64,000 bases of DNA from Quercus robur (taxonomy: Eukaryota > Streptophyta > Magnoliopsida > Fagales > Fagaceae): positions 44,166,277 to 44,230,276 of the forward strand of contig NC_065543.1 in the NCBI RefSeq assembly GCF_932294415.1. Direction: 5' to 3'. Both the position numbers and the translations under genes were made by a program. The notes under the pieces are model-generated. The model searched no databases. It was not told where the DNA came from and worked only from the letters and a program-made list of their open reading frames with translations. Numbering within the stretch: position 1 is the first letter of the stretch; each line of letters begins with the position of its first letter. This document shows, piece by piece, positions 1,594 to 59,235 of the stretch.

Positions 1594-1687
1594 GAACCAC
1601 GATCTTCATTCTTCAACCACAAAACCAACCAAAAACTCATCTTTTTACCATCTTGTACTCTCTAAAAAACAGGAGTCTCTAACAGCC

Positions 1688-39091: not shown

Positions 39092-39124
<33 letters not shown>

Positions 39125-39166
39125 CTATTTGGATACGTTTGTTAATTAAAGTTTTGGTTCATATAA

Positions 39167-39175
39167 TTATTTATA
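39167..39175. repeat. Left target-site duplication of the giant MULE
   Basis: TTATTTATA, identical to 59026-59034 at the other end of the element. Nine bases is the usual Mutator length. Confidence 0.85.
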
Positions 39176-39179
39176 GAGT

Positions 39180-39230
39180 AATTCTACGGTACTCCCCGAA
39201 AAAAGGGGGAGTACGGTACCCATTAGTAGG
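39180..39230. repeat. Left terminal inverted repeat with internal hairpin
   Basis: GTACTCCCC, then GAAAAAAG, then GGGGAGTAC form a 9-bp perfect stem within the terminus. The right end (58987-59012) has the same design, GTACCCTCC...GGGGGGTAC, with one mismatch. Confidence 0.75.
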
Positions 39231-39247
39231 TAACCTATTATACCATG

Positions 39248-41085
39248 TTACTTTTTTCTCACATTTGACGGTTCCATTCTCACATTATGCAGTTCCAACA
39301 TCACATGTGACAGTTCTTTTTTCACATTTGATGGTTCCTTTACTTTTTTCTCACATTTGACGGTTCTATCCTCACATTATGCAGTTCCAACATCACATGT
39401 AACAGTTCTTTTCTCACATTTGGTGGTTCTCTTACCTTTTTTTTCTCACATTTGACAGTTCCATTCTCACATTGTGCGGTTCCAACATTACATATGACAG
39501 TTCTTTTGTCACATTGAGTGGTTCCCTTAATTTTTTCTCATACTTGATGGTTCTATCCTCACATTGTGCAGTTCCAACATCACATGTGACAGTTCTTTTC
39601 TCACATTTAGTGGTTCCCTTACTTTTTTTTTCTCACATTTGACGGTTCCATTATCACATTATGCAGTTTCAACATCACATGTGATAGTTCTTTTCTCACA
39701 TTCGATGGTTCCTTTACTTTTTTCTCACATTTGACAGTTTCATCCTCACATTGTGCAGTTCCAACATCACATGTGACAGCTCTTTTCTCACATTTGGTGG
39801 TTCCCTTACTTTTTTTTCTCACATTTGATGGTTTCATCCTCACATTGTGTTGTTCCAACATCATATATGACAGTTCTTTTGTCACATTAAGTGGTTCCCT
39901 TAATTTTTTCTCATACTTGATGGTTTCATCCTCACATTGTGCAATTCCAACATCACATGTGACAGTTCTTTTCTCACATTTGGTAGTTCCCTTACTTTTT
40001 TCTCACACTTGACGGTTTCATCCTCACATTGTGCGGTTCCAACATTACATATGACAGTTCTTTTGTCATATTGGGTGGTTCCCTTACTTTTTTCTCACAC
40101 TTGAAGGTTTCATTCTCACATTGTGCAGTTCCAACATCACATGTGACAGTTTTTTTCTCACATTTGGTGGTTCCCTTACTTTTTTTTTTCACATTTGACA
40201 GTTTCATCCTCACATTGTACGGTTCCAACATCACATATAACTGTTCTTTTGTCACACTGAGTGGTTCCCTTAATTTTTTCTCATACTTGATGGTTCCATC
40301 CTCACATTGTGCAGTTCCAACATCACATGTGACTGTTCTTTTCTCATATTTGGTGGTTCCCTTACTTTTTTCTCACACTTGACGGTTTCATCCTCACATT
40401 GTGCAGTTCCAACATCACATGTGACAGTTTTTTTGTCATATTGGGTGGTTCCCTTACTTTTTTCTCACACTTAAAGGTTTCATCCTCACATTGTACAGTT
40501 CTAATATCACATGTGACAGTTCTTTTCTCACATTTGGTGGTTCCCTTACTTTTTTTTCTCACATTTGACGGTTCTATCCTCACATTGTGCGGTTCTAACA
40601 TTACATATAACAGTTCTTTTGTCACATTGAGTGGTTCCCTTAATTTTTTCTCATACTTGGTGGTTCCATCCTCACATTGTGCAATTCTAACATCATATGT
40701 GACAGTTATTTTCTCATATTTGGTGGTTCCCTTACTTTTCTTCTCACATTTGACGATTTCATCCTCACATTGTGCAGTTCCAACATCATATGTGACAGTT
40801 CTTTTCTCACATTTGGTGATTCCCTTACTTTTTTCTCACATTTGATGGTTCCACTGTCACATTAAGTAGTACCAACATCGCATCTAACTCTATTTTTGTC
40901 ACATTCAGTGGTACCCTATTTTTTTTATTCTCAAATTTGATCGTTCCGTTATTACATAGGGTAGTACCCACATTACTTCTTACCGTACTTTGTCACATTC
41001 GGTAGTACCCTAATTTTTTTCCTTACAATTGACAGTTCAATCGTCATTGTAAGCACTACCAATATCACATCTAACCATAATTTTA
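39248..41085. repeat. Minisatellite, ~92-bp unit, about 20 copies
   Basis: Units of about 92 bases run from the left MULE terminus inward. A typical unit reads CTCACATTTGACGGTTCCAT, CTCACATTGTGCAGTTCCAA, CATCACATGTGACAGTTC, TTTTCTCACATTTGGTGGTT, CCCTTACTTTTTT. Many units contain the perfect palindrome TCACATGTGA. A longer period of about 370 bases (four units) is visible between 39.99 and 40.85 kb. From about 40880 to 41085 the units decay. The long frames on both strands here come from the repeat and are not genes. Confidence 0.9.
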
Positions 41086-41426
41086 CATTTAGGCATATCA
41101 CTAAGGTCACTTTTTTACTTACTAATAACCGCTCATCACAATAATAATTTTTTTAAAGTTATTAAAAATTTAGATCTAAAATCAAAAACCAAAAAAAAAA
41201 AAAAAAAAAAGCATCCCATGAATTTAGCCCAACCACAATAATTACTCTTGTTTACAAAAAAAATCAGCTGGAATTATCTTGGTTTCTTCCACAAATATTT
41301 GAATATACCAATTAACTTCCTACGTATCTCCCTTGGTAGCTTCCATCACATTCAAGGTCATACCTCCCTATAAAATAACATAGTTGAGGTCATGTTCTTG
41401 ATGTTTATATTTTTATTATTTATATA

Positions 41427-41981
41427 TGATGGTAAACCAAAAATTAGACTATCTCCAATTCATCCATAGTGTCGTTCAAGACCAGAAAGGTCATCCAAGT
41501 GCAAGAAGGTCATCCAGCATGGAGTCACCTGGACGACCGCCAAACACTTCAAAATTTTCAGAGTAAATCTATATCCAAAAGCTTATGATTCAGACCATGT
41601 TCTACTATTCAGAAGTAGGAGCAAAATTCTTGTTCATCACTCTAACTTCCCACTAAGTTCTTAACTTCTGATGACAGTTGCAGAAATTAAGTCTGAACCT
41701 TCTAACTTCCATCCACGTTGAGGAAGTTACTAAAGAAGTAACCACTCCAAAGCTCACTATAAAAGGACTTAGCCATATGAAATCAAAGTAAGTTTTTCAC
41801 CACTTATAGAGTTGGAATTCCTGATTTCAAGACAAAAAACTAACTTAAGCATTAGAGGGTTCTTGGCCAATTCACCCCAGTCATCTTTGATCTTGTGCTT
41901 CTTTCTTTTTAGGCCTTCCAAGCAATCTCAAGCCCATTGAAACCCGAAGCATTCAGCCTCCTGGTTTTCTATGCGTCATCA
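41427..41981 (+). mobile_element. Solo LTR (LTR retrotransposon fossil) inside the MULE
   Basis: 555 bases from TGATGGTAAACC to GCGTCATCA (TG...CA), flanked by ATATA at 41422-41426 and 41982-41986. A promoter-like TATAAAAGGAC lies near 41758. It differs in sequence from the other solo LTRs in the window. The flanks are TA-rich, so the duplication is modest support. No internal part remains. Confidence 0.6.
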
Positions 41982-42658
41982 ATATATACTATAAAATCGA
42001 AGATGTATAATCTTATGTGCTTTCTAATTGTTCTTATACAACATCTGCAACTTAATCACAGTTGTGTGTTTATTGTGGTGTCTAAGGTTGGAAATAGGGT
42101 GACTATACAATTAGCAAGTTATGCAAAAAATCAAATACAAAGATTGTTAACAATTTTAAAATTTTCAGTAAACACTTGAATTAAAACTACAGATCTAGTA
42201 TGAAATAGTCATCAATCAAGGCTATTATACTAAATTTTATATTTTTTAGGCATTTTCATTAGATCCACATGTGCGAAAATGTCAAATGACTGTGTCTGAC
42301 ATGGGTATAACCACCCCAACTAAAGTGTCTATGCAATTTTGTTTCATAAAATTATTATTACATTTAGACCCATCTAAAACAAAATAAACATCCCAAAAAA
42401 TTTCCACAATAACAAAAATTACCAATAAAAAAGCTACAAACAATTAAGGACAATTGGCCAATTTTACCAAAAACGAACAACCCAGTCACTTTAAAAAAAA
42501 TTATCAAAATAATTTTGTCATTGAGAGTTCAGCATATTGACCACAGTGATAAGTGTGAGCCTTATTTGAGTTAGCAAAGCCTACACTAGCTAAGTCTAAG
42601 AGAGTCGTAATAGCAATGAAATTTTTTCGTTGTTGAAGACTTATCGATGCCACAAAAC

Positions 42659-42660
<2 letters not shown>

Positions 42661-42695
<35 letters not shown>
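42661..42695. repeat. (CT)n microsatellite
   Basis: About 17 CT units. Confidence 0.9.
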
Positions 42696-42696
<1 letters not shown>

Positions 42697-42994
42697 GTTT
42701 CGCAAAATTTATACAAACTCGTCATTCTAAAGCCATTTGGTATTTGTTCCTATAAAATATTGGAACGTGTAATTTGAACATAATTGTCTGTTAAAAGGTC
42801 AATTTTCATTTTTATACTTTGTTCGAATCAGCATGGTGGCAAGTCGGTATATTTTTTGCCGAGCAACTCTGGTTCGAATCCTTCATGCCTGCAATTTTAT
42901 TTTTTTGAATTTTCAATTTTCGGTCCATAAGTTGAAAAGCCCACAAGATCCTACACCCAAGAAAAACCCTAGTTCATCCCAGATCTTCTTTCCA

Positions 42995-43111
42995 TCAATG
43001 TCGGTGATAACAGCCACTAATTTTCCTCTCTTTCTATGCCCTTTTGTTCGAAGTCTCCACCGTTTCTTGTCACTAAAATCTCAGTACATCTCATCCTTAT
43101 TCTTTAGGTTT
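42995..43111 (+). pseudogene. Captured first exon, organelle-targeting-like peptide
   Basis: A leader with AAACCCTAG (a telo-box-like motif common in genes for translation and organelle proteins) precedes the ATG at 42995, which opens MSVITATNFPLFLCPFVRSL, then HRFLSLKSQYISSLFFR, before a donor-like TTTAG|GTTTCC. The peptide has Arg, Ser and Leu but almost no acidic residues, like a mitochondrial or plastid presequence. Nothing that continues it was found; a hAT end starts at about 43200. I infer a host first exon picked up by the MULE. The parent gene is not known. Confidence 0.4.
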
Positions 43112-43199
43112 CCATTTGGGGTTTTTGCTGTTTGACATTTGTATTGCTGAATTGTTATTAATCTTGTTTTGTTTTTGTTTTCCTTTTGGTTTCACAAGG

Positions 43200-43900
43200 C
43201 TAGGGACAGACACAAGTGGGGGCCTGGGCCCCTCTGGGCCATTTTTTTTTTAAGTAGGTTAATTTTCAAAAAAAAAAAAAAAAAGACTTGGGCCCCCTTA
43301 CAAAAAGCTTGGCCCCTTCTGAAATTGTAACCCAGCCTGCTAGTCCACATGTAAATAAAAATAAAAATAATAATTAAGTAGGTTAATTTTCAAAAAAAAA
43401 AAGAAAAAGAAAAAGAAAAAAGACTTGAGCCCCCATACAAAAAGCTTGGACCCCTCCCAGCCGGCCAGCCCACATGTAAAAAAAAAAAGAAAAGGGTTTA
43501 GTCCAAAAATGTAAACCCAGCAGCCTGTCTCCGAAGTCCAAATGGAAAAACAAAAGAAAAAAAAGAAAAGAAGGCTGAGGCAAGACAGAGAGAGTGACAG
43601 GCTTTTCAAAAAAAAAAAAAAAAGACAGTGAGAGGGGAGAGACTTTGCCGCTGCCCACGCCGTGAGTGAAGTTGCCAAAACGCGAGGTGAGAGCTTGAAA
43701 TCTTGCTGCTGCCCACATCGTGACGCCGCCACCACGCGAGAGCGACGAGGCCCATCTCGCAGACCCACGCGACACCCACACGACCACACCCACCACGCGA
43801 CACCCATCTCGCCGTGACGCCGCTGCTAGCTTTGATCTGCTCCAGCCTTCACAGTCAAGTATTTAATCTATCCTTCAAAATCTCAAAATCTGTGCTTGTG
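43200..43900 (+). mobile_element. hAT-type terminal fragment with GC-rich leader
   Basis: TAGGGACAGACACAAGTGGG, then GGGCCTGGGCCCCTCTGGG, is the kind of end common in plant Ac-like hAT elements. An internal duplication of about 125 bases follows (AAGTAGGTTAATTTTCAAAA and AAAGCTTGG.CCCCT in both copies). The stretch 43630-43850 is GC-rich with CACGCGA/CCACGC repeats, like the leader of such a transposase gene. No right end was found, so it is truncated. Confidence 0.5.
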
Positions 43901-44346
43901 GTTTTTTTGTTTTTACTGATGAGGAATTTGTGCCTGTGTTATTTTTCTTTGGCTTTTTGGCTCTGTGACTCTGTGACTATGTGACTATCTTACTGATGAG
44001 TCTATGTTTGTCTTTGTGAATTGTGACTCTGTGTGACTATATTATATAGATAAGAGAGAGAGTAGAGTCTCTAAAGATTAGAGAAAATATCAGTGTTTGA
44101 CTGTTTGTTGTGTGGTAGTTGGACAACAAAATAAGGACAAGTTAAAGGCTCACAGCAAAAGGAAAACTGAATCAACTTTCAAAGAATAAAAATGGTAAAA
44201 GTGTTTGTCGATAGTGGATAATAAGTTCATAGTGTCGGTAGTGGGATTGGTGAATGGGTCAGTGACAGAAAAAAGAAAAGAAAAAGAAAGATAATGGCAA
44301 AGAGACAAAAGATAAAAGACAAAAGACAAACATAAATCATATAATA

Positions 44347-45414
44347 CTAGACTCTGAGCACGTGCGTGAGCGCGTGCTCAGAGGCTCTTCTATTTTCTAT
44401 TTATTTGGTAAATTTTAATTATTTTTTGATCTCTTTACACAGAATGTACTAAAAAAATTAAACATGTGAATCTGGGCTTACTAAACTCAGGAAGACACTT
44501 CCCAAATCCAACTCCCACAATACATTCTAACATATATTTACATCCAGACAACATGAAATAATTACCTCTAGAGATGATGTTGCTCTGTTAGGAATGTAGA
44601 CTTTATAATGAACTTTAGCAGCCAAGTTGTCAACATGAAGGGACTTCAAAATGGTGGCATATCATTTGTAGCACGGACTTCACGTCCCCTACCCTTTGAT
44701 TGCAAACTTTTATCCTGAAAACATAAAACAACATTTATTACAAAGGCTACATACAAAAATAGTTGTTGCTATGAAGGATAGGGATGGAGGGAGAACATTA
44801 TAACTACTTAATGATAATGGGCGGAAGTTTGAAGTTGTGTTTGTGAGAATTTGTAGACAAATTTTTTTTAAAGCGATAGTTCATCGTAGTTTATCTTATC
44901 CAATTGTTAACTTTTTTTTTTTTTTTTTGCTGGGAATATATATATATATATATATATTTTTTTTTTTTTTGATAAAATTTTTGTTGGGAATATTGGTGGT
45001 TATTTAAGGAATAAGAAAGAATTTTGAACAATTAATTAATTTTTCTTTAATAAAAATAAAAGACAATGATTAGAAGTTAAGAGTAAAGCTTCAGTTGAAA
45101 TTAGGAAAAAAAATATTGAATTCAAATAGGAGAACGTGTAACTGGGATTTGAAGAGGTATGCTAAATTTTAGGAAGATGGGTGAACGTGGGATTTTTTTT
45201 TTAATTTAGGATATGTATAGGATATGTAAAAAGTGTGTGGAATGTATCTAAATAGAGATAATGTAGGCGGATTTTTAGGAAAAAAATGTGTCAAACTTTT
45301 GAAATTTGTTAAACCGTTTAGTGATAAAAAGTTGTAGACAATTTCATTTTTGCAATTACTTAGAAAAAAATTGAGGAATCCAAACAGATGAAACCTCTTA
45401 AATAGTAGTATAGA
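44347..45414 (-). mobile_element. Non-autonomous Helitron with a captured exon
   Basis: On the minus strand the element starts A|TCTATACTACTATTTAAGAGG at 45414 and ends with a hairpin then CTAG at 44350-44347, followed by T. The hairpin arms CTCTGAGCACG (44352-44362) and CGTGCTCAGAG (44373-44383) are perfect over 11 bases. It therefore sits between A and T, as Helitrons do, with no target duplication. It is 1068 bases and has no Rep/helicase. It lies just upstream of the transposase gene of the host MULE and so separates that gene from its original promoter. Confidence 0.88.
44566..44714 (-). pseudogene. Captured exon inside the Helitron
   Basis: Between TTTTCAG and GTAATT on the minus strand lie 149 bases with exon-like composition. 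One frame starts DKSLQSKGRGREVRATNDMP; the other frame ends LHVDNLAAKVHYKVYIPNRA. The change of frame within it suggests a single indel. The parent gene was not recognised. Confidence 0.45.
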
Positions 45415-45583
45415 TAATAAATTGTCACAAAAATTTATTAAAATCATAGTGAAAACTCAGAACATTATAGAGATGTTTACAGGGGATCATGATACAAGAA
45501 TAATATATTGGTCCTCTTTATTTCTTTATTTTTTAATTGAAAATTGTACATCTTCTTTGTTTAGGAATAATATATTGGTTCAC

Positions 45584-47816
45584 ATGGATCATGAAACGGA
45601 GAACGAAGGGAAGACTGATTTTATTGATTTGGAAAAACATTGGAGTACTATTCTCAAAAAAGGAATAGATCAGTTGATTGATGACCAAATAACTGGTTTG
45701 AAATTCAGTTCCCTAGATGATGGTGGAGAGTTTTATAACACATATGCAAAGTTGGTTGGGTTTAGTATTCGTAAAGATGAGATAAAGCGTAATAAAGATA
45801 ACATTGTGACCTCTAGAAGATGGGTTTGTGCAAAGGAAGGGTTGCGAATTAGGAAAAATGAGTCCAATGTAAATTGCATGAGTGAGAGACCAATAACAAG
45901 AAGTGGTTGCAAGGCCGCTTTTCGTATTAGATTTGAACGAAAGTTAGGTGAATGGGTGGTAGGAGAGTTTAAAAGGGAGCATAATCATGACTTAGTTCCG
46001 CAATTTGAGACTCAATTTCTCCGTTCACATAGGACTATTAAGGATTCTGATAAGGCTCAGATTATAGCATTGCATAATGTTGGGGTCAAATCAAATCAAA
46101 TCATGGATCATATGATCCAACAAGCTGGAGGATACGAGAATATAGGGTTCACTTCAAAAGACCTCTACAATTACGTAGCGGCAATTCGCAACAACAATAC
46201 GCGAGATGGTGATGCTGAATGTGCTTTGGGATATTTACAAGCAAAAGTAGACATGGACTCCTCATTTTTTTTTAAATACACTGTTGATGAAGAAAGCCGT
46301 TTGGCTAATCTGTTTTTGACAGATTCTCAAAGTCACTTAGATTATGCATGTTTTGGAGATGTAGTCGCATTTGATACAGCATATAAGACAAATGTATACA
46401 AAAAACCCCTTGTTATATTGGTAGGAGTCAACCACCATTGGCAAACTATAGTATTTGGTTTTGGACTATTGGTTGATGAGACCGTTGAAACATATACTTG
46501 GGTGTTGCAAAATATGCTTGTAGCAATGAACAATAAGACTCCTATTTCAGTCGTGACAGATGGGGACAAAGCAATGAGTAAAGCTATTAAAACGGTTTTT
46601 CCAAAGTCTCGACATCGTTTATGTGTGTGGCATCATGAAAGGAATGCTTTTGCAAATCTACATGATAAAGTATATGAAAGTTTTATTAGGTGTATGGTAC
46701 GATATTTTACACCAGATGAATTTGAAGACATGTAGAAGAAAATGGTCGACAATCACAATTTACATAACCATGAATGGTTGCATGAAATGGGCTGAAGCTT
46801 ACATGAGAGGTCATTTTTTTTCTGGGTGCAGGAGTACACAATGTTGTGAAGCCATGAATGCATTCTTGAATAGATTTCTAGATAGGAAGACTAGGCTTTA
46901 TGAGTTGTTCCAGCAAGTTGATAGAGCACTTTCACGTATTAGACACAATGAGATGGGGGCAGATTTTTCTTCAAATTATACTGAACCTATTCTGATTACT
47001 GGGTTAGCTGAAATAGAGAAACATGCTGCTACTATATTCACAAGGGAGGTATTCAGCATGGTTCAAGAAGAATAATTGAATGAACAAAAATTCATTGTGC
47101 TTTACTACATAGATAAGGAAGGTTTTCGTACGTACACCTTATCTCAGTATGCATCCCCTGACTCAAGATGGGAGGTTGTGTATTGTCAAGCTGATCAATC
47201 TATGAAGTGCTCTTGTTTGCTATTTGAGTCATATGGATATCCTTATGGGCACCTATTTGCTATTATGAAGGTTGAACATTTGAAACAGATTCCACCGACA
47301 TGTATAATGAACAGATGGTTGAAAACAGCAAAGTCCGACCTGCCTTACAAACTTGAATCCCAAATGTCTCCTGATATCATACGTATGGCACGGTTTAGTG
47401 CATTGTCTGCTAGTTGTTGTCAGATGTGTTACTTTGGTTCAAGAACAACACAAGGCTTCAAAGAATTGAAGGTTGAAATAGCAAGGTTGACACGCCGCAT
47501 GGAAGAACTTTATAATTCAAGTAAAGAAGCTGCTGAAGATGGGATACGCACTGCATCCAATAAAGCAAACTTAAATGTTCGTGATCCAGCCATTGTTAAG
47601 ACTAAAGGTGACCATGGTAGCACGAGCAACAACCACAGCCATGCGAAAGTTAGGCGATGCAGCAGTTGTAAAGATGTTGGACACACAAGGCGCACATGTC
47701 CATCTACACATATTCAACAAGGTGAACATGTTGATGGTGACAACGTCCCTGAATCCATGGAACATCCAGCTGTTGGCTCACCTGATTTGGAAACAAATTA
47801 TTATAATTTTCTTTAA
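45584..47816 (+). pseudogene. FAR1/FRS-type MULE transposase, disrupted
   Basis: From the ATG at 45584 (MDHETENEGKTDF) runs a FAR1-family protein of about 740 residues. The FAR1 zinc domain is present (WVCAKEG, RSGCKAAFRIR, REHNHDL). The MULE DDE core follows: first Asp in VVAFDTAY (about 46372), second in VVTDGDKAM (about 46560), the CxxH motif RLCVWHHERN, and Glu in CCEAMNAFL (about 46848). A SWIM-type finger (CSCLLFESYGYPYGHL) has Tyr where its third Cys should be. A CCHC zinc knuckle (CSSCKDVGHTRRTC) ends the protein. In-frame stops at 46733 and 47073 and a frame change near 46740-46800 break it. FAR1-type transposases (maize Jittery) drive MULEs, and host FRS genes derive from them. Its place in the MULE makes it the element's own transposase. 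Confidence 0.88.
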
Positions 47817-48590
47817 TAGTGAAATGTCGATGGGATATTTACTAGACAACATTTGAATTTTTTTTTTCTGGCTGTTAGCTTTTTTGGTTAAACTTCATTT
47901 TTGGTTATTATTATCACATTGTTAGTTTTTGGAATAGAGTTACTGGATTGGAGTTGGTATTAAGTTCATCTTGTTACCACTGGTTCTTTTTAGTTGCTTG
48001 CTTTATGTTTTCTAATATGAAAAACTCTTTGAGTATTGATCTTAGAAGCAAACCTTGAGTTCTTAGTCATGTGGCTTAATGGTTAGAAATTTTCTGTTCT
48101 AGGTTCTGTTTTTATTTTGATATTCTAATTATGTATTCCAGGACTAGTACTGTTAGTTTTATATCTATATAGGGATCATTAATGAATTGCAATGATATTG
48201 AAATCCTTATGAGATAGATATGTGCTGTTCATGTTTGAGCTATTTAGATAGTTGAAGTACATGTAGGCCCTTTGACAAGAAGCAAAATCAAAACTGAAAC
48301 ATCTGTGGGGCAGAGCTACATCATCCAGAAAGGTGTGGTGGATCCACCTATTTTCTATTACCATCGATACTTGCTCCTTCAGTTTTTCTTATTTTGGTCA
48401 GAACTTATGTTAGTTTTTCTATACTTGATGCACTTGGTATATGGTAATGTAGCTTCAAAAACTTTTTTTCTCTCTTAATATTCATTCTGTGAGCTACTTA
48501 TCCAAAAAAAAAAATGTATCCTATGAGCTGGGAAGCCTCCGAAATAGTTTATTTAGTGTCTATATGCTAAGCCATTCATAAAAACAATGT
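47817..48590. other. MULE interior, no gene seen
   Basis: T-rich sequence between the transposase 3' end and the captured FKBP exons. It may be the intron sequence that came with the capture. Confidence 0.35.
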
Positions 48591-48593
48591 CAG

Positions 48594-49265
48594 GCAAAAG
48601 AAGAAAAACAAGAAGAAGTGAAAAGAACAGGCTAAAGAGGAAGAGGCTCTTGAATCTGGTAACAACACCGAAATCAATGTTCCTATTGAGGATGAAAAGC
48701 AGCCTGAGTTAAAGAGGAGTTCCAATCTGAACCAAGCTTCACCTGTTGAGAATGATCGTGATCATAAGCTATCTAACAAGAAGTGAGAACAGATTTCTCA
48801 TTTTTTTTAGTTGATGTATTTGACTATAAGGACAGTTGAGTATATATCCTGTATGCTCAAACTGTGCCCTTGAACTTTTCTTGTACATCTTGTTAAATAT
48901 ATGCATTTACTCTATACTTTATCACAAAAAAAGAAAAAAGAGAAAAAGAAAGAAAGGGAGATTTCTAATTGCTTATATTGTTGAAATTCATATAGTTTAC
49001 ATGTTATTAACATGAGTTTTGTCTGTACATGTGCACAGGGACCTTGGTGTTGATTTGGACAATGTTACTGGGAAAAATTCCTCGGAGGAGAAAAATAGAG
49101 AAGAAAAAGAAGAAGTCGACAACTGAGGAGGGTGAAGGAAAAGCTATTGTGGATCAAACTGTTTCAGCTGTGGGAAATAAGGAGGTAGAGGAAAAACAAA
49201 GTGAAGTCAAGTCATCTCGAGTGAGAACCTTTGCAAACGGGTTGGTTATTGAGGAGCTACAATTG
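48594..49265 (+). pseudogene. Captured FKBP43/53-type peptidyl-prolyl isomerase fragment
   Basis: Two exon-like pieces keep their splice signals. The first (about 48594-48785) gives KEQAKEEEALESGNNTEI, then NVPIEDEKQPELKRSSNLNQ, then ASPVENDRDHKLSNKK, followed by donor GTGAGAAC. The second, after ACAG at about 49038, begins DLGVDLDNVTGKNSSEEKN and later reads SSRVRTFANGLVIEELQLG. The last block matches the segment just before the FKBP domain of plant nuclear FKBP43/FKBP53 (V-R-T-x-x-N-G-L-x-x-E-E-L), histone-chaperone-type isomerases. The FKBP catalytic domain itself is absent. There is an in-frame stop near the start of the first piece and a frame change in the second. It lies between the two MULE genes and is best read as gene capture. 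Confidence 0.65.
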
Positions 49266-49313
49266 GGCTGTTTCTTTGCGTTTCCGAGGGTGAAGGAAAA
49301 GAGTAGATGGTGA

Positions 49314-51389
49314 TTCTTTTGTGTGAAGAGAGAAAAAAGATTTTAAAAAATCATGAAAATTGATATTTAATGAAATGGTTGTATAGATAAATAATCAAAT
49401 GTGGGTGTTTTGAAAAAATGGTTAGGTAAAATATAAAAAAAAATAGGTTCATACAAGTTTTTTTTAAAACGTTTTGCTTTCCATTTTTATTGTCTTGTTT
49501 CTTGTATGGTTCCACCTTTGGTGGGATGATAAGTGTTGATGCACTCTTTCTGGCTTCTGTTTATTTTTGGTTCTAACAAGCAAGGGCCTCCCCCTACAAA
49601 GCTTTGGATGTCCCAATCAGGCATATTTATATAAATTCTTTTTATGCAGCTATGGAGCTAAAAGTGCAGGGAAGAAACCACCAAATTCATGGCTCATGTT
49701 TGATGTAGAGTTGGTTGATGTTCGTTGATGATGTTGCTTTTGTGTTTTCCTTGTAAGTTTTTTGAGGTTCTTGCTTTCTGCAAAAATTAGAGGTTTGTTA
49801 TCATGAGGATGTAAGATTACGAAAAAAAAATGGAACCATTGTTTCAATCTGGGAACTGGTTGAGCAAAAATTTTATTTGAAAATTATTGTGTTTGAATTA
49901 TATATCAATTACTTTACTCATAAACTGAGTTATAAAAATTATTATTTTGCGCAATATTTTCCAATTATACAATGTGCAATCAAAGTGCTCGTTGATATGT
50001 GCTCACTTGGATTACGTGTAATTGTGTAGCATCTTCGTTGAAATTTTTACATATAAATGTTACTTGGTTTATACTTGTGAATCATTTTTTTTTTTTATGG
50101 AAAACTTGTGAATCAATTGAAGACTAAGAAAATACTCCTGTATGTTTGAAGTTATGGGAACATGAAACATTGTATTGGGAATGTGAATTTTGAAAGTACG
50201 TTATAGGTCCCACATGTTTTGGCTTTTGGATGATGAAAACTAATACAACTTAGTTTTCACTAATCTAAACACCATCTAAGATCCTTCAAAACCGAAGACA
50301 AAACACTAATGACTAACGTGACATTGAGATATTTCAAATATTGAAGTCCGAGTGTAACAAAAAGGCCCACATGGGGGACCATCTACAAGGGGAAGCAAAA
50401 GGAGTCAATGAAAAATTTTCCATTAACAATAGACATATTCCTTATTAGTTATTATACACTCACCGTCCACACAATACCACATGAACCAATTTATGTGCAA
50501 ATTGCAATATTAGTAATATATTAAAGTGTGCAATAGTAGTAATGTTGTGTAGTAGTAATACAAAGTGTGCAATGGCAATAATGCTGAGTGTATTAAGATT
50601 TTCCGTTATGTAGCTCTTACTCTAATAATGCTGAGTGTATTAAGATTTTCCATGCAGTAATGGCAGTAATGCTGCATGGCCGTCTTCTTACCATTGGGCC
50701 CCGTCTTACCAATGTGCGATGTAAATGTGACAGTTCTTTTGTCACATATGAGCCCTTCTTACCATCCTAACATTCATTTCTCTACTTCTCAATTACATCT
50801 ACTTCTACCAAATCCACGTAGTTAAATCTTTCTAGAACATCCCAGAGAGACATCATTATTCTTTTGTAGAATAACATAAATCCTAAGACAAACTTTTCGA
50901 GTCCTAGCACTTAAGGAAAAAGTTTTTAGTGAAAGGCCTTATATGCCCCTTATAATATTGCTTCAAAAACAGAAAATTCACTTAAAGACTCTTAGACTTT
51001 AGAGCCTATAAACATGCGACAAAGGAACCCTTTTATACATTTCATCTTCTAGATAACTACGACCAGGGCTTTCAAGTTGTCTGAAATCAAGGTACCAACA
51101 CTATACAAACTCTCTTAAACTGAGATGGTTGTTGACAAATATATATATGCATCTTAGCATCCTCACCAATCAAACAACATAAATTGATATCTAAAAACAT
51201 GCAGTGCAACTCACATAAACAAGGGTAGTGCAACTCACGAAATTCAATCTCCCTTTCAATCAAAAATAAAATTCAAATAAATTGCAGCATTTTCCAAAAA
51301 ATTCAGTTATCAAATTATACAAATCAAAGTCATTCCAATGACCGAAAAATATCTTGTAGTGTAGTTTTTCTAGCATTTTCTATTTTTTT
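49314..51389. other. MULE interior, no gene seen
   Basis: AT-rich. At about 50731-50752 a 20-base stretch matches the minisatellite unit exactly (TGACAGTTCTTTTGTCACAT), 10 kb from the array. Imperfect short repeats (AATAATGCTGAGTGTATTAA) occur at about 50577-50650. Confidence 0.4.
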
Positions 51390-52242
51390 TTAACGTTGTT
51401 CATTTTCCATTGAAAGCACTAGATTTGATGCCAACTTGTATCGAATACGTTTCGACCAACTCTCCTGAAAAAAGTAGACATTGTTGATGAATAAAAGGCT
51501 TAAGCAAATTATGCGAAAACTGTAAAATATACTTCCAATAAATATATTACCATCAAGGTTAGATTCTGTTTGATAATTTTTGTATGTATGTGCTTAATAA
51601 CATACATGCCGCAATCATACCTAAAATATGAAAACAGTTAAAATATAAAAAACCTAAAGATTCACGCAATAGTTATCCATATGTGCAAATCTACAATTTA
51701 GTACGTACCCATTATCTTGTATAGGATTCAACGGGGGTGATTTCAATGGAAATTTGGTAATACTATTAGTATAGTTGTCTTTCTTTAGATAACTCAATAA
51801 CTTATCGAGGCCTTTTACCTATCGCAAAGTGAGATTATAAGCAATTATTACGTACAAAACTTAAGTAAACCACATATCAAAATTATTATTGAAAAAAATA
51901 GAAAAAGAGACAGTACCACTGTTTGCACATTTTTTATTCGAATGTCTTGCCTAGTTGTGCTTGGCAAAGAGTCCAATATATGTATACATTTTTTTCTTGA
52001 ACTAAAGTCAATGACACATAAGTACCAGTGACTATTATTGTCATTCATAGGGATATAAATCTACAAGTACAAACAAGCAATATATTAGCATGTGTTAATT
52101 TAAAATACACAAGTGTGTTGAGTAAATTTACCTGTTCACAACACATCAATCTTGACATATACTTGTCATCGTCCCTATATGTCCTTTTAAACCATTCCAG
52201 TGTGGGATTTCCATCTTCTTCAATCATTTTTTGCTACAAACA

Positions 52243-52275
<33 letters not shown>

Positions 52276-55200
52276 CTAAGGAATGAAATACTATAAGCAC
52301 AACCCGAAACATATATAAAAAATGAAAAGTAATATGTTAATTAAATACTATATGCACAACCAAAAATAATTAAGCAAACTTACCGAGAAATGTGTTGGCA
52401 AATGCCACGCATATAGTGCTCCATACTTTTTCTCTTCCAAAGTCATCATGCAAATGGTCAAGTTAATAATCTAGCATAAAATATTATTGTTACAATTAGT
52501 GAATAAATAAACAAAATTAATATTATATTTTCCTATTTTAATTTCATAAACTAACCTGACTGCTTATCCATTGGTTAGGGAGCAATGAAAAAAAAGCCGC
52601 ACGATCACCATACTCATATTTCATGCTAGAAAGAACTTCACTGAACATTATTCATTAACATAATATTTAGTTAGATCTTATTCAAAAAATGCATTAATAT
52701 TAATTTCTATATATAAACAAAAATGACAAACCTCCCATCTAGATCCTTATTGAAAATATAATTGCATATGATCTTCTCCAATTCAGTAAATGGTGCGAAC
52801 TCATTGATACTCTCCTCATCAACCAGTCCAAATTCCTAAAACAATATAATATATAATAATTAACATAGGAAAATATGTTGTATTCACACCCTAATTTATT
52901 AACGTACACATTAAAGGATTCACCTGGGATGTATCTTTGATTTTTTTCATCTTTTTCAAATTTGGAACTACAGCTTGGGAGGTGACAATTGGGCTACGTT
53001 TTAGAGATTTGGTGACTTTACTCTTGGCAGAATGTGTAACACATGATGCAATAATTCTATTGTTATGTGAGAAAGTTAATTGTAGCATATCCACATCCTG
53101 CACAATATATAACAAATGAACAAAATTAAAAAATTGTGTAGCTAATAGAAATTCTAAACTATTTTAAAATAATTAACTAGCAATTATTGTATTGCTTACC
53201 ACATTACGAGATAGGACTGTTTTGCTACCAGGTTTTTGTATGGATTTGCTTAGCCCAACCATGTGAACATTGCGGTCATTCTCTATTGTGTCTTGTATTG
53301 GAGATGGTGACACCGTCTTAAATTCTCTTTTAATGGGTACTGTATCATCTTGGTGCATTTTGTCTTGAACTGGAGATGTAGACTTTTTCTTAGATTCTTT
53401 TTTAACATGAACTGTATCATCTTGGTCCATTTTGTCTTGGACTGGAGATGTAGACTCTTTCTTAGGCAGCACTTTTGTCTCATTTTTAAGCTCTTCTACA
53501 ATATCATTTAGGTCCAAATCAATGGTATGTCCAGTATGTTCCCTTTTTGCTACATTCTTTAACTCCAAACAAATAGGTTTGGATGTATCATCTTGGTGCC
53601 TTTTGTCTTGAACTGGAAATGTAGACTTTTTTTTAGATTCTTTTTTAACATGAACTGTATCATCGTGGTCCATTTTTTCTTGGACTAGAGATGTAGACTC
53701 TTTTTTAGGCAGCACCTTTGTCTCATTTTTAAGGTCTTCTACGATATCATTTAGGTCTAAATCAATGATATGTTCAGTACATTCCCTTTTTGCTACATTC
53801 TTTAACTCCAAACAAATATCATTCTTAAATGTTTCCGTATTGTTTGCAAACACATTCTTTAACTCCAAAACAATCTCATTCTTAAATGTTTCCATATTGT
53901 TTGCAATGACATTCTTCAACTCCAAAACAATATCTTTCTTAAATGTTTCCATATTTTTTGCAAGGACATTCATGGTGTTATGCAAAACTAGCATATCATC
54001 TCGAATACTTGTTAATGATTGCTCAAATCTACGAGTTGCTTCATCAGAATCCTGTGGATTAATTTATAGGAACAATCATAAAAACATGTCCATTATCAAA
54101 AAATCATCAAAGTCATAAAATTTATTGAGTGGAAACAATACCATATTTGGCTTGTGTTCATCCCTACATGGCATAGCATGAGATTGATTAATATATTGCT
54201 TTTCCAATGGAATATTGGCAGTCTCATATCCACCCTCCATTTGTGTTACTACTAACTATAATAAACATAAAATAAATAATGTCAACTACATACGGTAAAA
54301 ATTCAAATAAGCACTAGATTTAATAGAATAATAAGTATTCAAACATTATAAAAAATCAATTGTTACCTTAGGACTATCAAAACCTCCAATTGAATGTAAT
54401 TTCAGCATCCTTTGCTTAACTTCCTCTTTTCCCCCAAAAACAAATACGTGGTCGATGTCGTTTGGAAACATGTTCAACGTCAATTTCAACATTAACGTGT
54501 TCAAAATAAAACAACTGCAAATGTATAAAATGTTATAAATTTATAATCAAGATTCATAGAAATTTAAGAAATAAAATTGTATTCTTGAATGTAACTATTT
54601 ACTACATATTACCATTAATAACAACACGCAACCATCAACTGCTATAAGATTATTGTCTTTATGTTTGCGTACACCTTGAATGAGAAAATCTAGCACGAAC
54701 TTCGCCCAATTCAAGTTTCTAATCTCTTCAACATTACGGCAAATTAAAACAAAAGACCGTTTCATATAAGATTTTGTAGTGGGACATAATAAAATACCCA
54801 CTATAAACAACAAAAAATAACTCACAAATTCATTTCCAGATGTTTCCATCTTATTCAACTCATCCTCTAAGAGCTTAATTGGTATATCCCCTTCCACATT
54901 TAATCCATATTGTTGGCACATATGATTTATCTCTTCTGCGCTCCCAACAATAGATATATCAACCCCATTTGATTTTATTCCTAAAATATATTCTACATCT
55001 TCAATGGAAATCGGTAACCTCTTACCACAAATATCCAATGCACATGAATTTTGGTCAAAATGATCAATTAACCATTTGCATAAGTCTCTATCCAAATTTA
55101 TAAACTTTAAATCCAACAAACTACCAAACCCTAACTCTTGAATGACAGATTTTTGTCTTAGATTCAATTTGTGAATCATCGAACGAACGCGACCAAGGGT

Positions 55201-55772
55201 ACACCGAGTATCTAATGAAACCTGCATTATAAAATGAATAAAAAGGGTTTTATAACGAAATTTAATACATAGTGATGCATTCTAAAAGTTTCGTAGGTAA
55301 ATACTTACTTTACGTGGTTTGCAAGGAATATTATGTTTTAAATTTGCATAATTTTCACAATTCTCACGTGCTTCCCTCCTATACTCTAATTTAGAGTCGT
55401 CATCAAGATTATTCCACTTTTTTGTAATCTCATCCTTAACCTGTAATTTTAGATTTTCATACTCAAGTATGATGTCCATGAATATGTGAACTAAAAAATA
55501 ATAATAACCTAAAAAAATATAAGTATTATTCAACTTACAGCTTTGCTTATCTTGACAATGCCTTAAGCTTTCATCATTTCTACTTGCTTTTTACTAAAAA
55601 TCCAAATTGAACAAAACTCACTTTCTTGAATATAACATTAGGATAAATAAAACAAGTGAATATATACTAAATTGCGTGAATCTTACTAATAAATTATAAA
55701 TGCTCCAAGTGGTCTTTTCGGGGGCCTAACTTGGGGAGCATCTTGCTCTTCAATGTTCTTCGCTCTCCCCAT
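51390..55772 (-). pseudogene. HMG-box / plant-mobile-type / ULP1 protease gene of the MULE
   Basis: Sixteen exons on the minus strand, GT-AG throughout: 55772-55687, 55593-55539, 55440-55309, 55221-54613, 54514-54367, ~54255-54142, 54051-53200, 53097-52924, 52835-52732, 52640-52556, 52470-52384, 52233-52132, 52060-51917, 51818-51709, 51620-51551, 51464-51390. Exons 1-3 give an HMG-box (PPKRPLGAFIIY ... KISKAVKDEITKKW, SKLEYRREARENCENYANL). Exon 4 (203 codons, VSLDTRCTLGRVRSMIHKL onward) is the domain that precedes ULP1 in plant transposon-borne genes. Exon 7 is a Lys/Glu-rich linker with repeats. Exons 13-15 form a C48 (ULP1) SUMO-protease core: His in NNSHWYLCVIDF, Asp in HILDSLPS, Gln in PIQDNG, Cys in DCGMYVIKH. 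The frame is open from exon 7 to the stop. Exon 2 has one in-frame stop and exon 5 one frame change, so full-length product is doubtful. Confidence 0.8.
53400..53995 (-). repeat. Coding tandem repeats in the ULP1-gene linker
   Basis: Within exon 7, about four copies of a 20-residue unit (METFKNEIVLELKNVFANN type) are followed by two copies of an ~80-residue unit (KNVAKRE.T.H.IDLDLNDIV, then KNETKVLPKKESTS and DDTVHVKKESKKKST), offset by about 240 bases. Confidence 0.8.
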
Positions 55773-58072
55773 ACTCCTATCGCAATATAACATGAAAAAA
55801 AAAAAAAAACAAGGTAAGCAATAACATGCATTAAAAAGTAAATACATTTCACGGTTGAATTTTGAAACTAGACAGAAGGTGAATTTTGAAACTAAACATA
55901 AAATAAATTTGTGTGATGTGGACACAAGATATAAGGAGTCTACTATCAATTGGGCCTAAAGACCTAAGCCCAATCTCTTAATTAGTAATTTTCTTTTCCT
56001 ATATGGATCAGGAGTTAAAGTTCTTTTCTTGTAAGCAATGTTTTGGAACTCTATTAAGAAGCCCTGGGTTCAATTTTATAAGACAAAGTTTAATTGATAA
56101 TAAAGTTTTCACTAGTGTTATTTCAATTGCTTGGTGCCAACCCTAGCCAACCCTAGGTGTTGACTCCTAGCATTTTCTTTCACTTGGTTTTGAATCCAAG
56201 CAAGCCAAGGTGCTAAATCCTAGGTCCCATCCTTTATTTTCTTATTCTTTAATTTATTGTTGCAAATTTTTCGTTTGTCTTTCATCACTGTGTACTTTAT
56301 AAAAGAACATTAGGTACTCATGTTCATAGTGGAGGAAAAAAAGTCCAACTGGTTTCAAGATACAAAGAGGAAAAGTGATTAGGAGCTCAAAAAATAGAGT
56401 CCCAAAAGATTATCAGGATTTTTTTTTTCTTTAAGTAAGTTTTTATTCACATAAAAAAGAGCAAAGATGAAACACCATCAAATACATGGGTTGTGAACTG
56501 AAGGTGCATCTAAATCCAGCAAACTAGAGACAGAATGACCACTTGTGGGAGCCATCCAATCATACAAAGTATGTAGAAAAATCAACTTCACAGCCAACAT
56601 TAATCATTCAAGGACTTCAAATGTCCAGTTATTTTGTTCCTTCCAAATAATCCACATGACACAAGGATTGCATTCCAAATATCACCATTTTTCTGCTTAG
56701 AAAACTGCCCCTTCCAACATGCCAACAAATCTACACCCTCTTTGGCATAACCCACTGCACCCCAAAGAGGCATAAAATGAAAGACTACGGATCTCTATCC
56801 ATAGAACAATTTAACAATAAGTGATCATAGATTCCCTAGCTTGCTTACACATACAACAACAATCCACTATGATAACATAAGCATGCCTGGCACAAGAACT
56901 AGGTTATGGATGAATTCCTTTTATACCAAAAAAAAAATGGAGATAATAAGTGAAAAAATTAAAATAATACTTCTTTAATTAGAAGAGTAACTAAGGAAAT
57001 GCAGTGAAGTCAATCAAGAAGTGTTTCTGAATAAAACCATATTCTCAAAAATTTGACAACTCCTAATTTTACTCCCCACAAACTTTTTTCGAATCTAATT
57101 GTAGCTATAAACTAGTTGATGTTCACTACAATGCACTTGTTTTAGCCAAAGCATCAACCTATGCAAAACCTGCTAAATCATCACAATCTATTCAATATTC
57201 AACACCCCTAGGCCTTGGCTTAGTAGTAGCTTTTTCATCAAGTAGAGGAAAAAGCGTTGAAATGATTTTTCAACTTTAAAAAATTTTAAATTTTAAATTT
57301 GAAAAAAAAAAGGTAATAAAATGATATTTAACAGCTGATAGTGTAGTTTTAAAATAATATAAAAAAATTAAATTAAAAAAAAAAAAGCATCAACAAATAT
57401 CCAAATAAGCAGGGCCAAGGAATGAGAAAGTTGAGCAAGGAATCAAACAGAGGTGGCATCAATAACAAATTCATCCCATTTTTGTTTGATCTTCTTGAAT
57501 TGGCTTAGAGAATGACTCCCATGTACTCCCTCTTTCAATAATGTAAGTTTGAGTTGCCAAATGCTCTTATTTGAAAGAAAATAATTGATGCAGAACAGAG
57601 GGCTTTGATATTAAAATTTATAAAAGACAGAAGAATTCTCAAGGGGCTATGCAGAGCCACACTGCTAGAAAGTAGAAAGTAGAAACTAATGCTAAAAGAG
57701 GGACACAATTTTGATATAGGAGATGATCTAATTCGGAAGGCTGTTTTTATTACAACTTCAATTTATGGTGAACATCATCCAGATAAAATATCTGCTCCTG
57801 AAACTCTGAGCAAACTCACCAGGCTTCTTTCAAATTCTAAATTTTAGAGAAACCAACTCTAAAATAGGAAACCAACTCAAAAAAAAATAGCACAAACCAA
57901 CACTGAAATTGGTGTTCTTACTGCCAAGGTGGTCGGAAAAAAAAAAAAAAAAAAAAAATCTCCTAAGTCCGTAGGTTCATAGTATCGTGTCCTCCCCACA
58001 CTACCAACCAAATCTAATCTTATCCCAACTTATGGATAAGGGTTCCCACGTCTCACATTCCAAACTCAAAGT
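55773..58072. other. MULE interior upstream of the HMG-ULP1 gene
   Basis: No exon was supported. The minus strand of 58440-58860 would be the leader side of the HMG-ULP1 gene. Around 56460-56900, sequence such as CCACTATGATAACATAAGC and TCCAAATAATCCACATGAC suggests a decayed LINE zf-RVT region on the minus strand, but no clear frame remains. Confidence 0.35.
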
Positions 58073-58345
58073 ATAAATTTTTTTTTTTTCTTTTTTTTGA
58101 GAAACCAGTCTGTGAGACAGACCGATGCTTTTATTATTAAAACATAAGAAAACTAATCAAACAGAGCAAGGGGGATAATGTCCCTAGGTAAGTCTTCAAC
58201 CCAAACCTGAAATTCTAATTCTAGCCCAACCCGGGATTTCTTTGCCAAAGCATCGGTAACCTAATTACAATTTCGTTTCACATGGCATTAGTGATCCAGG
58301 CAATCAATGGTGGACTGACAAGCCGTGTAAAGATTAATTTGTCAA
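58073..58345 (-). mobile_element. 5'-truncated LINE tail (RNase H C-terminus)
   Basis: On the minus strand the frame reads HVKRNCN, VTDALAKKSRVGLELEFQVW and VEDLPRDIIPLALFD before a stop, then a short 3' tail and an A-rich end (T tract at 58078-58098 on plus). This is the end of the RNase H domain of plant L1-type LINEs (D-A-L-A-K-K motif). The 5' truncation is typical of LINE insertion. It lies within the MULE. A frame break is present in the short coding part. Confidence 0.65.
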
Positions 58346-58439
58346 ATATATAAGAACCGAAACTTAAACAAAACAATAATATCATAAACCCACAAAGTTT
58401 AGAGAAATAATATAAACCCATATCAGCGTTAATCATATG

Positions 58440-58860
58440 TAAAGAGAGAACCTGAATATTGTGGGTGGCACCGCCGATTTAGAATGGAAGAGAAGAAGCA
58501 CCGCTAAGTCGTCCGGGAAGAGATGAAGCGCCGCCAAGTTGGATTGGATATGAGTGCACCGCTGATTTGAATATGGAATGGAAGAGAATAAGCTAGAGAG
58601 CGGCGTCGACAAGTGGATTGGATGAGAAGAAGCGCCTTCGATTTGAGGTTGTGGGTGCGCCAGGCTCTGAGTGTTTCGCCGGGCTCTGAGGGTTTTGTGG
58701 GTTGCGCCGCAGATGTGGTATCAATGATTTGAGGGTTTTGTTTAGAGAGAAAAACAGAGCAAACGATTTGAGAAACAGAGCAAACGATTTAAGGGTTTTG
58801 AGGCAAACAGAGCAATGGGTAGAGACGCAAACGTGAGACAGGAGAAAGGCTGAAAAGGCT
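58440..58860 (-). promoter_or_regulatory. GC-rich block next to the right MULE end
   Basis: A GC-rich patch in an AT-rich element, with repeated GATTTGAGGGTTTTG, GCGCCGCC/GCACCGC and AGCGCC motifs. It lies where the promoter and leader of the minus-strand HMG-ULP1 gene would be, since MULE genes are driven from their terminal repeats. A donor-like CCTGAATATT/GGTTCTC (minus: AATATTCAG|GTTCTC) lies at about 58450. Its role is inferred from position only. Confidence 0.35.
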
Positions 58861-58974
58861 GATGAATGTTTTAATTTTTTTTGTTTATATTTAACCTGTT
58901 TAACCAGTAACCTAAAACCTTTAAAATTATATCAACGGACAAGATCAAAACCATAAGACATTAACGGCTCAGAT

Positions 58975-59025
58975 ATAGGTGGGTATCGTACCCTCCTTTT
59001 TTTGGGGGGTACGGTAGAATGACCC
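58975..59025. repeat. Right terminal inverted repeat of the giant MULE
   Basis: Reversed, it reads GGGTCATTCTACCGTACCCC, an A tract, then GTACGATACCCACC; it pairs with the left end at about 39176-39222. Confidence 0.82.
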
Positions 59026-59034
59026 TTATTTATA
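59026..59034. repeat. Right target-site duplication of the giant MULE
   Basis: TTATTTATA, identical to 39167-39175. Confidence 0.85.
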
Positions 59035-59235
59035 ATTACAAAAAATATTAATGATTTTTCGTACAAATCAAAAATAGAAAGTGATTTCTGACTCATTTTT
59101 AGGATTGCAACTAAATATTGGAAAACAAGTAAGTTTTCCACACAAAATTAAAACATTTTTTGAGAAAAAAAATGTGATATGTCGAAATAAATAAAGCATA
59201 TATGTGGAACCTAAAATTAAGATTTTTAAGACCTA

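What the first reader, a model, noticed from the sequence alone, without database searches (positions are those of the whole stretch)
39176..59025. A 19.85-kb Mutator-like element with matching ends and a perfect 9-bp target duplication
Seen: terminal inverted repeats (GAGTAATTCTACGGTAC and, reversed, GGGTCATTCTACCGTAC) and TTATTTATA directly outside both ends. Established: 9-bp duplications and convergent genes are MULE features. Inference: everything in this interval, including two genes, a minisatellite and captured exons, is one mobile unit rather than host genes and scattered repeats. Few MULEs this large are delimited from both ends.
Basis: partly seen in the sequence, partly recalled or inferred. 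Interest (0 to 1): 0.9.

Follow-up and report, generated by a model that had tools for sequence, protein, structure and literature searches.

The report
A giant jumping gene, fully delimited
A 19.85-kb stretch of a plant chromosome is one very large DNA transposon of the Mutator superfamily, with sister copies elsewhere in the genome, a DNA repeat array fixed beside one end and a captured piece of a host gene; each of these features has precedents, but the whole is unusually large and well delimited.

Summary
The ends form a 47-bp inverted repeat (39 of 47 columns) with TTATTTATA on both sides; among 50,576 exact 9-mer pairs this pair has the best facing ends. The interval is one mobile unit. 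A near-collinear 19,572-bp sister on C1 has its own perfect 9-bp duplication; a 24.6-kb copy lies on C40, and deleted or partial ones on C3, C38 and C37. Listed ends form 32 inward-facing pairs against 1 outward. Joined flanks match dispersed repeats that lack the element (35 of 42 matches cross the junction; 6 of 6 fetched are gap-free). Inside are a FAR1-type MULE transposase (broken here, open on C1) and, convergent, an HMG-like/PMD/Ulp1 gene. A 92-bp array sits about 72 bp inside the left-type end; 21 of 24 pairs under 10 kb show it although none holds a scored transposase match. A piece of an FKBP53-like gene came from C41 (95-98%) and was not found in the C1 or C40 copies; the C1 sister carries an aspartyl-protease piece near the same place. 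FAR1-type, Ulp1-carrying and 17.7-kb MULEs are in print. Best reading: a giant TIR-MULE whose second gene probably works like VANC/KIU anti-silencing factors (untested).

The parts
39167..39175 (.). target-site duplication, left copy (TTATTTATA)
   Evidence: in six related empty sites this place is single and reads like TTATTTGGA
39176..39222 (+). left terminal inverted repeat, 47 bp, with an internal hairpin
   Evidence: 39 of 47 columns match the right end; family of ends genome-wide; fold
39248..40947 (+). 92-bp minisatellite, about 18 copies, degenerating to about 41080
   Evidence: present next to the left end in the C1, C40, C3 and C38 copies and at 39 merged genomic array loci, 25 of them with a known end 69-79 bp outside
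45587..47816 (+). FAR1-type MULE transposase gene; frame interrupted near 46733 and near 47073
   Evidence: FAR1 7.3e-23, MULE 8e-27; frames; the C1 copy is open over 777 aa
48330..50207 (+). captured FKBP53-like gene piece with introns, in several donor segments; not found in the C1 or C40 copy
   Evidence: donor C41:3873253-3876554, 95-98%; FKBP53 match 8.4e-5, FKBP_C 0.0069, under cut-off; no match in the C1 or C40 slot
50310..50625 (+). further piece related to C41:3880647-3881005 (79%)
51509..55770 (-). second gene, convergent: split HMG-like box, plant mobile domain exon (55224-54598), coding tandem repeats (54063-53176), Ulp1/C48 exons (52060-51509); exon limits approximate
   Evidence: PMD 1.2e-6 and HMG_box 0.0047, both under cut-off; Peptidase_C48 3.4e-8, over cut-off; copies; constraint
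58980..59025 (-). right terminal inverted repeat, 46 bp
59026..59034 (.). target-site duplication, right copy (TTATTTATA)

Best explanation
The interval 39176-59025 is a single, complete, now defective TIR-type Mutator-like element of the FAR1/Jittery kind, inserted by cut-and-paste into an old dispersed repeat with duplication of 9 bp. Shown here: ends, duplication, related empty sites, sister copies, domains, array, captured piece. Inferred: a FAR1-MULE transposase, now to be supplied from another copy, recognises the ends. The convergent second gene (HMG-like/PMD/Ulp1) most likely helps the family escape silencing, as VANC/KIU proteins do in Arabidopsis VANDAL elements. The 92-bp array fixed about 72 bp from one end is the likely cis site, bound by the second protein (about 0.35) or by the transposase. 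Host gene pieces were copied in at DNA level between the two gene ends (FKBP53-like here, aspartyl protease in the C1 sister), probably by template switching during gap repair. The confidence below is for the element; the anti-silencing step alone is about 0.35-0.4.
For: Ends and duplication. The C1 sister (27961398-27980969, 19,572 bp) aligns in order, its main segments at 85-97%, with TSD ATTCATAAT 9/9. The C40 copy (24.6 kb) is collinear and the C3 copy is internally deleted. Perfect 9-bp duplications in 6 of 11 end pairs checked, window included (C3 8/9). Inward pairs 32 versus 1 outward. Related empty sites: 35 of 42 matches, 6 of 6 aligned. Array at a fixed place: 25 of 39 array loci have a known end 69-79 bp outside; 20 of 20 loci with ends G[AG]GTAATTCTACGG and 0 of 3 with GGGTCATT ends carry it; 21 of 24 pairs under 10 kb show it. 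Second gene: dN/dS 0.38 (C1) and 0.41 (C40), one-sided p 5e-4 and 9e-4. Transposase dN/dS 0.21 (C1), 0.49 (C40), 0.41 (C38), p 6e-7, 0.018, 4e-5. Captures. Precedent: VANC targets often form tandem repeats and VANC variable regions often carry tandem peptide motifs (PMC5735166); KIU proteins with Ulp1 act likewise according to a review (PMC13317346).
Against: The transposase and the HMG exon carry stops in this copy. The C40 copy has only 5/9 and the 18.0-kb C4 pair 3/9 duplication matches. Array and second gene have not been shown to interact. PMD and HMG scores are below Pfam's cut-offs, and DUF1985, the VANC domain, is only 0.089 in the window, 0.0031 and 0.013 in two relatives and absent from the C1 list. 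Against coevolution: the unit hardly varies between the loci read, whereas VANC targets diverge quickly. The C1 copy lacks the Ulp1 catalytic exons, so they were lost before or after it moved. Against constraint: for the second gene the C3 and C37 comparisons are not significant (p 0.20 and 0.37), and for the first transposase stretch C3 gives dN/dS 0.68. Only 3 of the 32 pairs hold both genes among scored matches. No expression or methylation data.
Confidence: 0.9

Rival explanations
1. Host genes and scattered repeats that happen to lie between two chance inverted repeats.
For: The duplication is AT-rich, and the transposase frame is broken.
Against: Near-collinear sisters with the same boundaries on other chromosomes, C1 with its own duplication; related empty sites; 32:1 inward pairs.
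Confidence: 0.01
2. A composite: the left end of one element and the right end of another, nested or recombined.
For: Several end subtypes exist, and some pairs, C40 among them, have unmatched flanks.
Against: The same left and right subtypes delimit the C1, C40 and C3 copies; the window and C1 copies have perfect duplications.
Confidence: 0.02
3. The element is real, but the array is not a target of the second gene: it is a transposase-binding or replication-slippage feature of the left end.
For: The array sits at a fixed distance from the end and is kept in 21 of 24 pairs under 10 kb, none with a scored transposase match; its unit hardly varies in the loci read, unlike VANC targets.
Against: It is on one side only (no TCACATNTGA in the right 3 kb of five copies), while transposase sites would be expected at both ends; units contain palindromic TCACATGTGA (9 in the window array); the second gene has tandem coding repeats as VANC proteins do.
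Confidence: 0.45
4. The second gene is only a passenger: a captured SUMO-protease-like gene of Kaonashi type without a role in mobility.
For: Ulp1 domains occur in distantly related MULEs and in CACTAs (PMC2528002); the C1 copy lacks the catalytic exons.
Against: Signs of constraint against C1 and C40 (dN/dS 0.38 and 0.41); it accompanies the transposase in the window, C1, C40 and C3 copies.
Confidence: 0.2

Closest known systems
Jittery-like / FAR1-type plant MULEs (group 36 of PMC6446971; CitMule, PMC4334395; Jitvine, PMC2528002)
   Same: FAR1 domain at the N terminus, MULE transposase domain, 9-bp duplication in CitMule, short degenerate inverted repeats (CitMule 17 bp 100%, 65 bp 78%; group 36 TIR 39-292 bp or none); some Jittery-like grapevine families carry Ulp1.
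   Different: About 20 kb instead of 6.9 kb (CitMule), 3.9 kb (Jittery, PMC9569675) or 11.9-14.4 kb (Jitvine); the group 36 row gives the TSD as not indicated or 8 bp; array of 92-bp units beside one end; captured host gene pieces.
KAONASHI (KIU) and VANDAL/VANC MULEs of Arabidopsis
   Same: A second gene beside the transposase; in KI-MULEs the Ulp1 domain lies in reverse orientation to the transposase; VANC variable regions and VANC target DNA form tandem repeats (PMC5735166; PMC2528002; PMC13317346).
   Different: Those are non-TIR MULEs; DUF1985 hardly scores here; here the array is next to the terminus and its unit is stable across the loci read.
Mutavine-1 of grapevine (17.7 kb, TIR 70 bp; Table 4 of PMC2528002)
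   Same: A giant TIR-MULE with many copies.
   Different: Listed with the MuDR-like families, no duplication length in that table; contents not compared here.
Pack-MULEs (Jiang et al. 2004, as described in PMC6431247)
   Same: Host gene pieces between MULE ends.
   Different: Pack-MULEs use a transposase supplied in trans and according to that review did not exceed 7 kb, most being 1-2 kb; here the piece sits in an element that also carries a transposase gene and a second gene.
Rehavkus (table of PMC6446971: 9-bp TSD, minisatellite)
   Same: 9-bp duplication and a minisatellite.
   Different: Arthropod and annelid hosts, PHD finger; the table gives the minisatellite as C-terminal; not compared by sequence.

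Membership tests
Mutator-like elements (MULE superfamily) | transposase with MULE domain | tested here: met
   PF10551 8e-27, PF00872 3.7e-6; C1 copy 1.7e-28
Mutator-like elements (MULE superfamily) | target duplication, usually 9 bp (9-11 in PMC4334395) | tested here: met
   9/9 in the window; perfect in 6 of 11 pairs checked
Mutator-like elements (MULE superfamily) | terminal inverted repeats | tested here: met
   47 bp, 39 of 47 columns; short by the standard of long-TIR MULEs
Mutator-like elements (MULE superfamily) | present transposition | not testable with these tools
   no population or expression data; window transposase broken, C1 frame open
Jittery / FAR1-type group | FAR1 domain at N terminus and SWIM or CCHC at C terminus | tested here: inconclusive
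   FAR1 met, 7.3e-23; SWIM 0.0014, 18.5 bits against a cut-off of 19.6, in the C1 copy
Jittery / FAR1-type group | placement in the clade by a transposase tree | not tested
   no reference transposases were at hand
VANDAL/VANC-KIU anti-silencing MULEs | absence of TIRs, or only short degenerate ones | tested here: inconclusive
   47-bp TIR at 83%: short and imperfect, but clear
VANDAL/VANC-KIU anti-silencing MULEs | second gene with DUF1985 | tested here: inconclusive
   DUF1985 0.089, 0.0031 and 0.013 in two relatives, not listed for C1; PMD scores better, also under cut-off
VANDAL/VANC-KIU anti-silencing MULEs | Ulp1/C48 domain (KIU only) | tested here: met
   PF02902 3.4e-8
VANDAL/VANC-KIU anti-silencing MULEs | second protein binds repeats in noncoding DNA and removes methylation | not testable with these tools
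   sequence data only
Pack-MULE | host gene piece between the TIRs with a donor elsewhere | tested here: met
   donor C41, 95-98%
Pack-MULE | no transposase of its own (non-autonomous) | tested here: not met
   transposase gene present, though broken

The most novel reading that the evidence does not exclude
A modular MULE family in which one end carries a fixed tandem-repeat array, kept even by members with no detected genes, and a master element encodes an HMG-PMD-Ulp1 protein that binds this array and lifts silencing of the whole family, while the gap between its two convergent genes repeatedly takes up host gene pieces: a TIR-type, FAR1-type counterpart of the VANDAL/VANC system.
Probability: 0.3. 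Interest if true: 0.75.

Novelty: new variant of a known kind. Interest (0 to 1): 0.55.

Why it matters
It gives a giant plant MULE bounded on both sides, with a near-collinear sister, related empty sites and donor sequences for captured gene pieces in one genome. That makes three questions testable: how cut-and-paste elements above 15 kb move, whether Ulp1-type second genes in TIR-MULEs serve anti-silencing, and whether a particular place in the element is prone to taking up host genes.

Tried and rejected
Chance and shuffling: rejected. The viral-contig scan for the end pattern gave nothing; the genome-contig scan with a shortened pattern gave one hit in a bacterium, taken as chance and not studied (L001). 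Rfam at gathering scores and the tRNA scan of the window: nothing. The NCBIfam scan of three window pieces gave only IS256, IS1249, Rex and XopD matches far under their cut-offs. A solved-structure search with the C1 aspartyl-protease piece gave nothing at E 0.1, so that piece rests on TAXi_C and on the C38 gene cluster. The idea that every full-length copy carries a host gene in the slot is not supported: of seven slot pieces scanned only the C1 one scored over its cut-off, and the parts of the C40 slot that were searched hold a solo-LTR-like repeat and other dispersed pieces; about 0.9 kb of it was not searched. The idea that array units diverge between subfamilies, as VANC targets do, found no support in the loci at hand; the subfamilies with 66-67% similar second genes could not be read. 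The first dN/dS run for the second gene used the wrong strand and was redone. Some stretches run a few codons into introns (stops left out of the counts), so those ratios are approximate. The pair list rests on listed places only (a part of 485, of 125), 150 of 580 candidates were scored, so 'no scored transposase match' is not proof of absence.
Full report
Observation. GAGTAATTCTACGGTAC begins at 39176, the reverse complement of GGGTCATTCTACCGTAC ends at 59025, and TTATTTATA lies directly outside both. The inverted repeat runs 47 columns with 39 identical, and each end folds into its own hairpin. In the window the pattern has two hits and none in 100 shuffles. A scan of all 50,576 pairs of identical 9-mers 80 bp to 30 kb apart ranks this pair first (20/25 facing bases; two A/T-run pairs at 18; best of 40 order-1 Markov resamplings 18).

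The ends elsewhere. The window lies in an assembly of 785.7 Mb and 42 contigs. The end pattern with up to 3 mismatches has 485 hits against 50 for the backward control, and the right-end pattern with up to 2 mismatches has 125 against 0. Only the first places are listed. Of the 156 distinct ends so listed, neighbours 1-30 kb apart face inward 32 times, outward once and lie on the same strand once; random placement gives 0.27 inward pairs. Of these 32 pairs, 24 are 5.2-9.7 kb and 8 are 17.9-24.7 kb. Three of the 32 (window, C1, C40) hold both a scored transposase and a scored second-gene match, one more (C5, 17.9 kb) a second-gene match only. I checked the duplications of 11 pairs including the window: 6 perfect (window; C1 19.6 kb; C3 6.4 kb; C1 6.35 kb; C4 7.0 kb; C5 9.1 kb), one 8/9 (C3 11.9 kb), two 7/9, one 5/9 (C40 24.6 kb), one 3/9 (C4 18.0 kb).

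Sister copies. The transposase core is 97% identical at C1:27967262 and 91-95% at C38, C40 and C3, then 77-82% at three further places, then a large family near 40% (150 of 580 candidates scored). The plant-mobile-domain exon is 96% identical at C1, 94% at C37, 91-96% at C40 and 90-92% at C3. The C1 element runs 27961398-27980969 (19,572 bp), has TSD ATTCATAAT on both sides, and aligns with the window element in order from left to right end. It lacks matches to window 42071-43073, 48325-52055 and 55962-57147, among shorter stretches. The C40 copy is 24.6 kb and in the same order; the C3 copy has lost window 46.8-54.0 kb; the C38 and C37 stretches gave left and right parts.

Related empty sites. 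The two flanks joined with one TTATTTATA (301 bases) gave 42 matches in the genome, 35 of which run across the junction, at 72-81% identity; the other 7 are the window's own flanks and partial, mostly A/T-run matches. Six fetched ones align without a gap over the nine bases and the junction. There the place is single; in 2 of 6 it reads TTATTTGGA and the other four differ from that at one base. The element therefore sits inside an old dispersed repeat. Both copies of the duplication share the same two differences from TTATTTGGA, as a true duplication should.

Contents. On the plus strand a FAR1-type MULE transposase (FAR1 7.3e-23, MULE 8e-27) has its frame interrupted twice; the C1 copy is open over 777 aa and also matches SWIM just under the cut-off. 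On the minus strand, convergent, lies a many-exon gene: a split HMG-like box, a plant mobile domain exon (both under Pfam's cut-offs), coding tandem repeats, and Ulp1/C48 exons with DCGMYV where the catalytic Cys is expected (the role of that Cys is recalled). The window HMG exon has a stop that the four other copies read lack. For this gene pooled dN/dS against C1 and C40 is 0.38 and 0.41 (p 5e-4 and 9e-4); against C3 and C37 it is 0.65 and 0.64 and not significant. For the transposase it is 0.21 (C1), 0.49 (C40) and 0.41 (C38), p 6e-7, 0.018 and 4e-5; C3, readable in the first stretch only, gives 0.68.

The array. About 18 copies of a 92-bp unit begin 72 bp inside the left end. It is present at the same place in the C1, C40 (about 40 copies), C3 and C38 copies; its motif TCACATNTGA is absent from the right 3 kb of five copies. 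Genome-wide, 39 merged array loci were found (39 of 505 candidates scored), and 25 of 39 have an end of the same orientation 69-79 bp outside (24 of these ends from the lists, one). The C38 copy's array is not among the 39, so the list is incomplete. Of 28 loci with exact end patterns (28 of the 37 listed outside the window), 23 carry the array: 20 of 20 with G[AG]GTAATTCTACGG, 3 of 5 with TAATTCTACCG, 0 of 3 with GGGTCATT. Of the 24 pairs under 10 kb, 21 show the array and none holds a scored match to the transposase or second gene; in the other 3 the array was not found in the lists and the ends were not read. Keeping the array without the genes points to a role in cis.

Captured pieces. Window 48330-50207 matches C41:3873253-3876554 at 95-98% in several segments, in order except for the last 75 bases, with donor stretches left out between them and introns kept. 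Its last exon matches Arabidopsis FKBP53 (8.4e-5) and FKBP_C under cut-off (0.0069). The C1 and C40 slots do not match it; they share about 150 and 195 bases with each other that the window lacks. The C1 slot holds an aspartyl-protease piece (TAXi_C 1.4e-7; nothing in the solved-structure search), closest to genes of a C38 cluster (92-97%). The searched parts of the C40 slot hold a solo-LTR-like repeat and other dispersed pieces. So two of three full-length copies took up different host gene pieces near the same place.

How it works. Shown: insertion as a unit with 9-bp duplication, and past mobility of the family. Following from established MULE biology: cut-and-paste by the FAR1-MULE transposase acting on the ends. 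Inferred: the second gene as an anti-silencing factor, from its Ulp1 and tandem-repeat features, its signs of constraint, and the array; the precedent is VANC/KIU, read in passages of PMC5735166 (and its section 9), PMC10398659 and PMC13317346. The KIU study of 2022 cited there was not held. Against it: the array unit is stable across the loci read, and DUF1985 scores poorly.

Known and new. FAR1-type MULEs, Ulp1 in MULEs in either orientation, large MULEs and gene capture are all in print (PMC2528002, section 8 and passages; PMC4334395, PMC6446971, PMC6431247, PMC9569675, PMC13317346, passages only). My ten paper searches listed no paper that I recognised, from titles and abstract starts, as describing a MULE with a fixed tandem array beside one end together with such a second gene; the library holds open-licence papers only.

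Noticed in passing
window 16700-16897 and 59729-59946: Two tandem arrays of about 105 and 117 bp have similar units (AATAATTCACTTG..CACAAAAATT), so the same repeat may lie in two places of the window.
   Followed up: no
window 39000-39175 and 59035-59159: The element sits in a dispersed repeat with 35 other places found at 72-81% identity; its kind was not determined.
   Followed up: partly
window 49269-49443: A 175-base intron piece of the captured gene matches dozens of places at 74-83%, so the donor intron itself held a dispersed repeat.
   Followed up: no
C40 copy, L072:1-2184: A 1.1-kb stretch is 98-99% identical to 39 other listed places, some pairs of them about 7.1 kb apart, which looks like a solo LTR of a young retrotransposon.
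   Followed up: partly
C5:46182682-46200595, C38:26647085 and C37:37188763: A subfamily with a 66-67% similar second gene exists, on C5 between related ends; it could show whether array and gene change together.
   Followed up: no
window 1595-2356 and 60966-62233: Open frames look by eye like a germin-like protein and a WAT1/EamA-type transporter, ordinary host genes (names recalled, not searched).
   Followed up: no
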